Under the pieces are notes generated by a model. The model saw only the letters and a list, made by a program, of their open reading frames with translations, made no database searches and was not told the origin of the DNA. A stretch of 64,000 bases of DNA from Myxococcota bacterium (GTDB lineage Bacteria; Myxococcota_A; UBA796; UBA9615; JAKLKC01): positions 104,467-168,466 of the forward strand of contig JAKLKC010000007.1 in the NCBI GenBank assembly GCA_023150875.1. The letters are read 5' to 3'. The position numbers were made by a program, and so were the translations under genes. The number at the start of each line of letters is the position of its first letter. Within the stretch, counting starts at the first letter, position 1. Positions 13,153-16,348 of this stretch are shown piece after piece.

Positions 13153-13578
13153 ATGACACTCTCCTACCCGGATGCCGCTCGTCGCCACCTTACGGACGCC
13201 AAGCACCTCTATGATGCGGGCCGGCTCGCGAACGCCGACCACCTCTACGGTGTCGCCGCCGAGTGCGCGCTCAAGGCTGTTCTGCAGGGGCTGGGTATGC
13301 GCATCGACCCACGGAGAGAGGCTCCCGAGACGCGGATCCACGCCCGGCACGCAGACGTGATCTGGCCTGTGGCGATCGCGTCCATGGGGGAGCGCGTCGC
13401 GGCCCGGTGGTTGCCCCTGCTGGGCGACGGCCTCCCCTTCGATGACTGGAGTGTGAACCGCCGCTACGACTCGGACTCGACCCAGCCCGAAAAGGAGGCG
13501 GTCGAAGGCCACCGGGAGGCGGCCGGAAGGGCGCGGAACGTCATGGACGCGGCGTGGCTGGATGGGATCGCCGGATGA
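13153..13578 (+). CDS. HEPN-like domain protein (first gene of a three-gene cassette)
   Basis: All-alpha pattern typical of HEPN proteins: YPDAARRHLTDAKHLYDAGRLANADHLYGVAAECALKAVLQGLGM; distal helix with R/H residues NRRYDSDSTQPEKEAVEGHREAAGRARNVMDA. Confidence 0.7.
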   Translation: MTLSYPDAARRHLTDAKHLYDAGRLANADHLYGVAAECALKAVLQGLGMRIDPRREAPETRIHARHADVIWPVAIASMGERVAARWLPLLGDGLPFDDWSVNRRYDSDSTQPEKEAVEGHREAAGRARNVMDAAWLDGIAG

Positions 13579-14894
13579 CCCTCAGATTCCACGATGCGCT
13601 GGACGTCGTGCTCCGATTCCTCGAGGGCCACGCCGGACTGGGGGACCGACGGCTGGTCGTCCGCGACCTGAGAGGCCGGATCCGGGTCCTCATCGCGGAC
13701 AGGGACCCCGCCACCAAGGGATTGTCCGAGGCGCGAAGGATCGAGCTGGAACGGCTCGCGCCGGTGCTTCATCGCGATCTCGGCCCCTGGTCTCCCGGTG
13801 AGAAGAGCGTGCTGGCCGACGCGTCGGTCCTGCTCTCGCCGGAGGACGTGTGGAAATCGCGCGAATCGGTGGCGCTCGATTCGAAGACCCGCCTCCTGGA
13901 GCGGACGGTGCTCGGCCAGGACTGGCTGCTGCCTCCCCTCCCGAACGCGGCGCCGACACCGCCGCGGGTCGTGCTGTTCGGTCTCAAGGGAGGTGTCGGG
14001 CGCTCGACCGCCCTCGCCGTCCTCGCCAGACACCTGGCCGAGGCTGGCGAGAAGCGGGTCCTGGTGATCGACGTGGACCTGGAGTCACCGGGCGTCAGTC
14101 GGATGCTGCTCGCGCCCGGGGCGCACCCGGCCTGGGGGATCGTCGACTGGTTCGTCGAGTCCGCGGTCGGACAGGGCGATTCCGTGCTCGACGACCTGGC
14201 CGGACGGAGCGCTCTCGGCACGGGGCTCGCGGGCGAGATCCTGGTGGTCCCGGCGGCGGGGCGCCGTACGGGTCCCTACATCCCCAAGCTTGCCCGGGTA
14301 TACCAGGGGCTGCACGACGGGTCGGACGATCACGGCTTCGGGGGTAGAGTGGCTGCCCTCGTCGACGGCCTGGAGCGGCACCTCGAGCCGGACGTCGTGC
14401 TCATCGACAGCCGCGCCGGCCTCCACGACATCGCGGCGGTGTCCTTGACGCGCCTGGGTGCGACGGGCCTCCTCTTCGCGGTGGACACCTCCCAGACCTG
14501 GGAGGGGTACCGGATGCTGTTCGAGCACTGGCAGCGCCACGCCGCGTCGCGCAAGGACTTGATCGACCGGGTGCGGGAGGGCCTCCGCATGGTGGCGGGC
14601 CACGTCCCGGAGACCGGGCGGGACGCCTACCTCGCGCGGTTCCGGGAGAAGGCTTGGAGCCTCTTCACCCAGACTCTCTACGACGAGACCCACCCGGACG
14701 AAGAGGCGCCGTTCAACTTCGACCTGGACGACCCATCGGCCCCCCACGACCCCCTCCGGATCTACTGGAGCCGGGCGATGCAGGACTGGGACCCCGTCGA
14801 CCAGCCCGACGCCGTTCCGCCGGAGCAGGTCCGAGGGATCTTCGGGGCATTCCTCGATGAGGCGACCGCGCTCGTCCTTGGGGAAGACGCTTGA
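13575..14894 (+). CDS. MinD/ParA-like (KGGVGR-variant) ATPase with a unique N-terminal domain
   Basis: Deviant Walker A VVLFGLKGGVGRSTALAVLARHLAEAG, VLVIDVDLESPGVS, VVLIDSRAGLHD; ATG overlaps the previous stop (ATGA). Confidence 0.88.
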   Translation: MTLRFHDALDVVLRFLEGHAGLGDRRLVVRDLRGRIRVLIADRDPATKGLSEARRIELERLAPVLHRDLGPWSPGEKSVLADASVLLSPEDVWKSRESVALDSKTRLLERTVLGQDWLLPPLPNAAPTPPRVVLFGLKGGVGRSTALAVLARHLAEAGEKRVLVIDVDLESPGVSRMLLAPGAHPAWGIVDWFVESAVGQGDSVLDDLAGRSALGTGLAGEILVVPAAGRRTGPYIPKLARVYQGLHDGSDDHGFGGRVAALVDGLERHLEPDVVLIDSRAGLHDIAAVSLTRLGATGLLFAVDTSQTWEGYRMLFEHWQRHAASRKDLIDRVREGLRMVAGHVPETGRDAYLARFREKAWSLFTQTLYDETHPDEEAPFNFDLDDPSAPHDPLRIYWSRAMQDWDPVDQPDAVPPEQVRGIFGAFLDEATALVLGEDA

Positions 14895-16348
14895 CGGCGC
14901 CCTTCCCGCCCGAAGCGGTCCGTGACGCAATCGCGTCGGCGCTGCCGGCCACGGCGACGAGCTTCGTCGGCGATCCGATCCGGCGAGAGTTCGTCTATCT
15001 CCCCCCAGGACACGCCCGCGCCCTCTCGCCCCACAACATGCTCGTCCGCGGGATCCGCGGATCCGGCAAGACCTTCTGGTGGAAGGCCCTCCAAGACGCC
15101 GGGCTCCGGTCGGTCCTGCGCGCCGACCTGCCTCGGGTGGGGCTGGAGGGTGCCGTACGCATCGTACCGGGATTCGGTGCCGGTGCCGATCCGGACCGGT
15201 ACCCCGGACGGGACGCCATCGCCGAGTTGCTCCAGACCCACGAGGCCCGGCTGATCTGGCGCGCCGTCCTCCTGTGGGCGGTGGCGGACGAGGAGGACGC
15301 GCTCCCGCGGCTGGGGACCTGGGGCGAGAAGGTCGGTTGGGTGGCGGGCCACGCCGAGGCGGTGGACTCCAGGTTCCACGCCATCGACGCCCGCGCCCTG
15401 GGAGCAGGCGAAGTCCGACTCGTCCTGTTCGATGCCCTGGACCGGGCGGCAGCGGACTGGGGCAACCTCCTGGACATCCTGCGGGGCCTGCTCCAGCTCC
15501 TCGTCGAGACCCGCGAGCTCCGGGCCATCCGGGCCAAGGCGTTCGTGCGCGACGACATGCTGGCGGACCCACGGGTCTTGAGCTTCCCCGACGCGTCGAA
15601 GGTCATCGCCGACGCCGTCGACCTCGCCTGGCCGCCCCGCGAACTCTATTCGCTGCTCTGGCAGTACGTCGGGAACGCACCGGCCGGGGGTGGGGAGGCG
15701 TTCCGCTCGCACTGCGCGACCACCTTCGGGCTGCCGTGGCAGGAAGTGGACGGGATCCACCGAATGCCCGCGAAGATGCGGCGGGACGAGAAGGTCCAGG
15801 AGAAGATCCTCCACGCCATCACCGGCCCCTGGATGGGCCACGGCCCCCGGCGAGGGAACGTATACTCCTGGTTGCCGGGCCACCTCGCGGACGCTCACCG
15901 GCAGGTCAGCCCACGGAGCTTCCTCGTCGCCCTGCGCCAGGCCGCCGCCGGGACGGAGCCGAGCAACGCGCTCGCGGTCGACTGGCGTGCGATCCGGGAA
16001 GGTGTGCGGGAAGCGTCCCGGATCCGCGTGGCGGAGCTCGTCGAGGACCATCCCTGGGTGGACGTCGCGCGGCGGCCTCTGGAGGGCCTGAAGGTCCCGT
16101 GCTCCACCGAGGAGCTGACCGAGCGCTGGGCCGAGGACGGTACCCTCGAGAACATGGGCTGGATCGAGACCGGCGTGGGCCCCACGCTCCCCCGCCACTT
16201 CGATGACGGGTATTCTGGCCTCCTGCGAGACCTCGGCGACCTGGGTGTCCTCCATCGCCTCGGCGATGGGAGGTGGCAGATGCCCGATGTGTACCGGGTC
16301 GCCTTCCACATGGGCCGCAAGGGGGGGATCCCCCCCCTCCGTCCTTAG
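14891..16348 (+). CDS. P-loop ATPase (STAND/AAA-like) of unknown function with C-terminal winged-helix-like region
   Basis: Walker A MLVRGIRGSGKTFWWKAL, Walker B-like RLVLFDALD; C-terminus SGLLRDLGDLGVLHRLGDGRWQMPDVYRVAFHMG. TTG start overlaps the upstream stop (TTGA). Confidence 0.82.
   Translation: MTAPFPPEAVRDAIASALPATATSFVGDPIRREFVYLPPGHARALSPHNMLVRGIRGSGKTFWWKALQDAGLRSVLRADLPRVGLEGAVRIVPGFGAGADPDRYPGRDAIAELLQTHEARLIWRAVLLWAVADEEDALPRLGTWGEKVGWVAGHAEAVDSRFHAIDARALGAGEVRLVLFDALDRAAADWGNLLDILRGLLQLLVETRELRAIRAKAFVRDDMLADPRVLSFPDASKVIADAVDLAWPPRELYSLLWQYVGNAPAGGGEAFRSHCATTFGLPWQEVDGIHRMPAKMRRDEKVQEKILHAITGPWMGHGPRRGNVYSWLPGHLADAHRQVSPRSFLVALRQAAAGTEPSNALAVDWRAIREGVREASRIRVAELVEDHPWVDVARRPLEGLKVPCSTEELTERWAEDGTLENMGWIETGVGPTLPRHFDDGYSGLLRDLGDLGVLHRLGDGRWQMPDVYRVAFHMGRKGGIPPLRP

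What the first reader, a model, noticed from the sequence alone, without database searches (positions are those of the whole stretch)
13153..16348. Candidate undescribed three-gene system: HEPN-like protein + KGGVGR-type MinD/ParA-like ATPase + P-loop ATPase, translationally coupled
Three consecutive ORFs overlap by 4 nt each (ATGA at 13575, TTGA at 14891), so they are almost certainly co-translated. Gene 1 looks like a HEPN all-alpha domain protein, a fold often used as an RNase effector in conflict systems. Gene 2 has a deviant Walker A (GLKGGVGRSTAL) preceded by a ~130 aa N-terminal region I do not recognise. Gene 3 has a standard Walker A (GIRGSGKT), a Walker B-like VLFDALD and a winged-helix-like C-terminus. 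The cassette ends 3 nt before a perfect 15 bp terminator stem and starts in a palindrome-containing divergent region, so it looks like a self-contained module. HEPN plus signalling/STAND-like NTPases is a recurring layout of prokaryotic conflict and anti-phage systems, but I do not recognise this exact trio as a named one.
Basis: partly seen in the sequence, partly recalled or inferred. Interest (0 to 1): 0.87.

Follow-up and report, generated by a model that had tools for sequence, protein, structure and literature searches.

The report
Three-gene module of restriction-type phage defences
Three tightly linked bacterial genes that look like a backup anti-phage module: a database already lists the set as an untested candidate, and here it turns up repeatedly inside DNA-methylation-based immune systems such as BREX, which suggests it guards them.

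Summary
In detail: three co-directional genes at 13153-16348, overlapping by 4 nt each. The trio is not undescribed: it matches PADLOC-DB candidate PDC-M28 A, B and C at E = 2e-37, 1e-133 and 3e-156. I found no open-access paper that names or tests it. It travels as a unit: 72 of 75 scorable GTDB loci carry all three genes in the same order and strand, mostly with 4-nt overlaps; gene 2-gene 3 fusions exist. Gene 1 has a HEPN fold (model pLDDT 96), but the canonical RX4-6H RNase motif is not conserved. Gene 2 is a MinD/ParA-like ATPase whose P-loop lysine is an invariant arginine (KGGVGR). Gene 3 is a STAND-like P-loop ATPase. The new result is context: at least 14 of 80 loci sit inside BREX operons, usually right after pglX, in both BREX-1 and BREX-2. 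Others lie beside type III R-M, DISARM-like or DUF1156-methylase genes. In two trio-less BREX-2 loci that slot is empty or holds another two-gene defence candidate. Best reading: a portable PARIS/PrrC-like backup module in which two NTPases control a HEPN effector. Defence function and mechanism are inferred, not shown. The window's own copy stands alone.

The parts
13056..13081 (.). 11-nt inverted repeat (1 mismatch) in the divergent intergenic region; possible regulatory site
13153..13578 (+). gene 1, PDC-M28A, 141 aa, HEPN-fold protein without a conserved canonical RX4-6H
   Evidence: E 2e-37; pLDDT 95.8; HEPN structures top, prob 0.99-1.00
13575..14894 (+). gene 2, PDC-M28B, 439 aa: about 110-residue N-terminal alpha/beta domain plus MinD/ParA-like (SIMIBI) ATPase with KGGVGR P-loop; ATGA overlap with gene 1
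   Evidence: NF047398, 179 bits, cut-off 90; E 1e-133
14891..16348 (+). gene 3, PDC-M28C, 485 aa, STAND/ORC-like P-loop ATPase with a conserved C-terminal region; TTG start, TTGA overlap with gene 2
   Evidence: weak Sll1717 family, 47 bits, below cut-off 75; E 3e-156
16343..16400 (.). strong hairpin after gene 3 between convergent genes; no U tract

Best explanation
The trio is a complete copy of candidate defence system PDC-M28, a portable three-component module. It occurs alone, as here, or nested in DNA-modification-based restriction systems (BREX-1, BREX-2, type III R-M, DISARM-like loci). Proposed mechanism: the three proteins are made together and form a complex. Gene 3 (a STAND-like ATPase) and gene 2 (a MinD/ParA-like protein whose P-loop lysine is replaced by arginine, so probably nucleotide-binding but slow to hydrolyse) act as a nucleotide-controlled sensor and switch. 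When a phage attacks or disables the primary restriction system, the switch releases the HEPN protein, which blocks translation by cutting or binding RNA, so the infected cell stops growing. Shown here: the trio's identity, its conservation as a unit, gene 2-gene 3 fusions, the HEPN fold (predicted), the conserved motifs, and nesting in restriction loci. Inferred: complex formation, defence activity, the trigger, the RNA target and the abortive outcome.
For: All three genes match PDC-M28A/B/C over full length. All three occur in order in 72 of 75 scorable loci. Stop-start overlaps are conserved. Genes 2 and 3 are fused in L052 (Gemmatimonadota) and in two Myxococcota genomes, L117 and L118. 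BREX-1 nesting: L028 is brxC-pglX-[trio]-pglZ-brxL, with BREX-1 genes likewise around L008, L009, L030 and L071. BREX-2 nesting: L075 is pglW-pglX-[trio]-pglY-pglZ, with L042, L044, L048, L057, L059, L065, L067, L069 and annotated plasmids L088, L095, L097. R-M and DISARM-like neighbours: L072 type III mod-res-[trio], L031 DrmD plus type III methylase, L021 DUF1156 methylase, L060 DrmA, L078 IIG and SNF2-PLD. The BREX slot is exchangeable: HEC-02A/B in Polaromonas, nothing in Rhodococcus. The pglX-pglZ slot of Salmonella BREX holds PARIS (PMC9009780, PMC11341690). HEPN fold. The arginine of KGGVGR is invariant in 73 of 73.
Against: No experiment. The window's own trio is not beside any R-M or BREX gene among the neighbours scanned, and the only PglZ found in the genome by one family search is on another contig. 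Most standalone loci were not checked exhaustively for defence neighbours, and there was no formal random-locus control. Gene 1 lacks a conserved RX4-6H, so catalysis is doubtful. Two other PADLOC 'PDC' candidates tested elsewhere showed no defence (PMC12409345). The PARIS nested in Salmonella BREX showed no activity against the phages tested (PMC11341690).
Confidence: 0.55

Rival explanations
1. It is a toxin-antitoxin-like selfish or stabilising unit in the manner of MNT-HEPN or HEPN-ParA dyads: gene 1 is the toxin, the two NTPases are the antitoxin, and linkage to BREX and R-M only reflects accumulation in islands and plasmids.
For: HEPN-plus-ATPase dyads were proposed as TA systems (PMC3710099). 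Trio copies lie on plasmids, some next to a tyrosine recombinase.
Against: Two large ATPases are unusual as antitoxins. Position inside the BREX operon directly after pglX recurs, which is more specific than island residence. Gene 1 comes first, whereas the antitoxin gene is usually first.
Confidence: 0.2
2. It is a regulator or assembly helper of the methylation-restriction machinery (for example controlling PglX/PglY deployment or DNA loading), with a non-catalytic HEPN adaptor and no separate effector.
For: No conserved RX4-6H. MinD/ParA and STAND/ORC-like ATPases often load or position other factors (general knowledge). Placement is between methylase and PglY/PglZ.
Against: Most copies show no restriction system in the flanks examined. 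BREX-2 exists without the trio elsewhere (e.g. L122).
Confidence: 0.17
3. It is a housekeeping or signalling operon unrelated to defence.
For: The window copy lies among ordinary genes: DUF4143 ATPase, sigma-54 activator, Dps-like ferritin, peroxiredoxin. In Methylococcaceae it sits at one conserved chromosomal place.
Against: Patchy distribution: 21 of 387 genomes of the phylum. The tree mixes phyla. Plasmid carriage. Nesting in BREX and R-M.
Confidence: 0.08

Closest known systems
PADLOC-DB phage defence candidate PDC-M28 (A, B, C)
   Same: All three proteins match the three profiles over full length, in the same order.
   Different: Nothing structural; this is a further member. The listing is a prediction and I found no published test. 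The nesting in BREX, R-M and DISARM-like loci is not described in the texts I could search.
PARIS (AriA ATPase plus AriB Toprim nuclease) nested in BREX
   Same: Multi-gene NTPase-plus-effector cassette in the pglX-pglZ slot of BREX-1.
   Different: PARIS has an OLD/ABC ATPase and a Toprim nuclease; the trio has a HEPN protein, a KGGVGR ATPase and a STAND-like ATPase. No homology was found.
PrrC/RloC-type HEPN nucleases nested in R-M loci
   Same: HEPN plus NTPase lodged in a restriction locus, proposed backup when restriction fails (from my own knowledge).
   Different: PrrC and RloC are single fused proteins with catalytic motifs and ABC-type NTPases.
HEPN(MAE_18760)-ParA/Soj dyad of Anantharaman et al. 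2013 (PMC3710099)
   Same: HEPN gene next to a ParA-like ATPase gene, predicted conflict system.
   Different: Two genes, a different HEPN family, predicted active RNase there; no gene 3.
NCBIfam NF047398 KGGVGR-motif ATPases and NF047389 Sll1717-family ATPases
   Different: Gene 3 scores 47 bits against a cut-off of 75, so it is not a member by that rule.

Membership tests
PDC-M28 candidate system | A, B and C protein profiles all matched, genes adjacent | tested here: met
   coordinates
HEPN superfamily | HEPN all-alpha bundle fold | tested here: met
   four HEPN structures rank first, prob 0.99-1.00, TM up to 0.65; Foldseek E-values only about 0.1; Pfam HEPN E 0.017, below gathering; relative L089 gene 1 passes gathering
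HEPN endoribonuclease | Conserved RX4-6H at the start of the last core helix | tested here: not met
   R104 invariant but followed by an H at the right spacing in only 12 of 83; H66 and R104 are invariant; RX4-6H starting at R24 in about half, in a non-canonical place
KGGVGR-motif variant ATPase (NF047398) | Score above curated cut-off | tested here: met
   179.4 bits against 90
Classical ParA/MinD ATPase | Deviant Walker A KGGxGK[ST] | tested here: not met
   R143 in 73 of 73 in place of the P-loop lysine; signature K138 retained in all
Sll1717-family P-loop ATPase (NF047389) | Score above curated cut-off | tested here: not met
   47.1 bits against 75
PARIS | AriA-type OLD/ABC ATPase and AriB Toprim effector | tested here: not met
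   only PDC-M28 profiles match
MNT-HEPN toxin-antitoxin | Minimal nucleotidyltransferase partner | tested here: not met
   no nucleotidyltransferase domain in any of the three
HEPN(MAE_18760)-ParA dyad | HEPN of the MAE_18760 family | tested here: inconclusive
   one search shows only HEPN (PF05168) and AbiV weakly; no direct comparison with MAE_18760 made
Phage defence system | Protection against phage | not testable with these tools
   needs plaque assays

The most novel reading that the evidence does not exclude
PDC-M28 is a dedicated guard of DNA-modification immunity across several restriction classes. It uses a hydrolysis-impaired KGGVGR nucleotide switch plus a STAND ATPase to sense inhibition of the methylase-restriction machinery, and it fires a HEPN protein with a new non-RX4-6H active site built around invariant H66 and R104.
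Probability: 0.25. Interest if true: 0.75.

Novelty: new member of a known kind. Interest (0 to 1): 0.46.

Why it matters
A widespread but untested candidate system now has a concrete, testable role. It behaves like an interchangeable accessory of modification-based restriction, occupying the slot after pglX that PARIS or other two-gene cassettes occupy elsewhere. If confirmed, it would add another guard of BREX-type immunity and a non-canonical HEPN effector, and it would support the idea that cassette slots in BREX operons hold backup modules.

Tried and rejected
Literature search for PDC-M28 and KGGVGR found nothing in open-access PMC. RX4H at residues 61-66 of the window protein looked like the RNase motif but R61 is not conserved, so I dropped it. 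Phage carriage: no hit in phage records and none confirmed in IMG/VR. Sequence search of solved structures for genes 1 and 3 found nothing meaningful. The viral fold library gave only weak matches for gene 1. The BREX survey paper PMC12839542 lists standalone HEPN effectors among BREX auxiliaries, but the passages I searched and read do not describe the trio.

Full report
What is there. The window lies in a 6.9 Mb genome held as 180 contigs. It encodes three genes on the + strand: 13153-13578, 13575-14894 and 14891-16348. Each overlaps the next by 4 nt. The third starts with TTG. Upstream is a divergent DUF4143/AAA_14 ATPase gene. Downstream, convergent, is a sigma-54 activator, followed by a Dps-like ferritin and a peroxiredoxin. 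Between the convergent genes lies a very stable hairpin (MFE -35.9 kcal/mol, z -5.4), unique in the genome. It lacks the U tract of an intrinsic terminator.

Identity. In PADLOC-DB the three proteins match PDC-M28A, B and C over essentially full length, at E = 1.8e-37, 1.1e-133 and 3.4e-156, and match no other system. The trio is therefore a member of a listed candidate, not an unlisted one. NCBIfam calls gene 2 a KGGVGR-motif variant ATPase (179 bits, cut-off 90). Gene 3 resembles the Sll1717 ATPase family only below cut-off (47 against 75). Pfam gives a sub-threshold HEPN match for gene 1. No open-access paper in the library names PDC-M28 or KGGVGR.

Conservation as a unit. A scan of GTDB genomes with a gene 3 profile returned 80 loci. 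In 72 all three genes are present in the same order and strand. Five lack flank because the contig ends. The exceptions are L022 (gene 3 directly downstream of a pPIWI_RE gene), L045 (gene 3 fused to a phosphoesterase-NACHT protein) and L041 (no gene 1 found). The gene 1/gene 2 junction is a 4-nt overlap in 41 of 71 loci, and the gene 2/gene 3 junction in 40 of 71. Genes 2 and 3 are fused in L052, L117 and L118. The gene tree mixes Pseudomonadota, Myxococcota, Thermodesulfobacteriota, Nitrospirota, Planctomycetota, Acidobacteriota, Chloroflexota, Bacillota and others. In the window's phylum 21 of 387 sampled genomes carry gene 3. Plasmid copies exist; I found none in phage records or viral contigs.

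Gene 1. An AlphaFold2 model from 83 sequences has mean pLDDT 95.8. The best PDB matches by Foldseek are four HEPN proteins (prob 0.99-1.00, TM up to 0.65), then Csm6; AbiV follows. Foldseek E-values are only about 0.1, so the fold call rests on probability and on the consistent identity of the hits. Invariant residues are G33, H66 and R104; nearly invariant are R11, H12, D15, R24, N27, E37, C38, K41, W99 and Y105. The canonical RX4-6H at the start of the last helix is absent as a conserved motif. Catalysis, if any, would need a different site. Anantharaman et al. note that HEPN proteins without the motif can still be toxic (PMC3710099).

Gene 2. The model has pLDDT 95.0. The ATPase half matches Soj/ParA and FleN structures. 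The signature lysine K138 is invariant, but the P-loop lysine is arginine (R143) in all 73 aligned sequences, and the DxRxG motif at 278-282 is kept. From general knowledge of P-loop NTPases this suggests nucleotide binding with weak hydrolysis; that is inference. The N-terminal domain carries a conserved VRDLxGRIR hairpin. I could not assign it to a known fold.

Gene 3. Alignment of 30 relatives shows a conserved Walker A (GxRGxGK) and a STAND-like LFDALDR with invariant D181 and D184, and a highly conserved C-terminal PDVYR segment. The DALD form and the weak ORC-CDC6-like Pfam hit fit a STAND/ORC-like ATPase; no structure was predicted for it.

Context elsewhere. In L028 the order is brxC-pglX-[trio]-pglZ-brxL, and in L075 pglW-pglX-[trio]-pglY-pglZ, each gene confirmed by PADLOC profiles. 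Local searches with those proteins find BREX-1 genes around L008, L009, L030 and L071, and BREX-2 genes around L042, L044, L048, L057, L059, L065, L067 and L069. RefSeq-annotated plasmids show the same: L095, L097 and L088. In the tree the BREX-2 copies form one proteobacterial cluster with some non-BREX members. BREX-1 copies lie in several places, and the Streptomyces copy is far away, which suggests that nesting arose more than once. Insertion points differ: after pglX in most, between brxC and pglX in L071, between pglW and pglX in L088. Other loci neighbour type III mod-res (L072), DrmD plus a type III methylase (L031), a DUF1156 methylase (L021), DrmA 435 bp away (L060), and IIG plus SNF2-PLD (L078). 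Of six plasmid BREX-2 records found with one PglZ query, three carry the trio. Of the two trio-less ones I opened, one has HEC-02A/B in that slot and one has pglX directly abutting the next BREX gene. In Salmonella BREX the pglX-pglZ slot holds PARIS (PMC9009780, PMC11341690).

Interpretation. A unit this tight, fused in places, patchily distributed, and repeatedly lodged in restriction operons in an exchangeable slot, is best read as an accessory immune cassette. By analogy with PARIS it would act when the primary system is attacked. Which protein senses what, and what gene 1 does, is inference. Cautions: no formal control for neighbourhood chance was run; the window copy is solitary; two other 'PDC' candidates failed when tested (PMC12409345); and PARIS in Salmonella BREX gave no measurable defence under the conditions tried.

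Novelty and score. As an object it is a new member of an already listed candidate system. The recurrent nesting across BREX types and other modification-based systems, and the missing RNase motif, make it a good experimental target, hence moderate interest.

Noticed in passing
G000:C117:53520-56930 (L099 7521-10928): A second, strongly diverged trio in the same genome (gene 1 weak, gene 2 about 33% identical). Its gene 3 frame is interrupted by an in-frame TAG, so it may be decaying.
   Followed up: partly
L022:3563-11443: Gene 3 without genes 1 and 2 sits directly downstream of pPIWI_RE_Z-domain and pPIWI_RE genes, as if gene 3 had been recruited into that system.
   Followed up: partly
L045:7890-12167: Gene 3 fused in one 1425-aa frame to a calcineurin-like phosphoesterase and a NACHT domain.
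   Followed up: partly
L007, L013, L016, L074: In Methylococcaceae the trio sits at one conserved chromosomal site between genes that look like mnmA and purB (by sequence, from my own knowledge).
   Followed up: no
L121:8539-10158: In the Polaromonas BREX-2 plasmid the slot between pglX and the pglY position holds the candidate pair HEC-02A/HEC-02B instead of the trio.
   Followed up: partly
L033:7190-8134: A caspase-family (Peptidase_C14) gene lies 117 bp upstream of a trio.
   Followed up: no
G000:C33:46953-48989: The window's genome carries a PglZ homologue on another contig, so it may have a BREX-like system not linked to this trio.
   Followed up: no
L098:7905-9395: Streptomyces plasmid with a distant gene 3 relative and no gene 2 or gene 1 annotated beside it on the same strand.
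   Followed up: no
window 16343-16400: Strong hairpin without a U tract between convergent genes, unique in the genome.
   Followed up: yes
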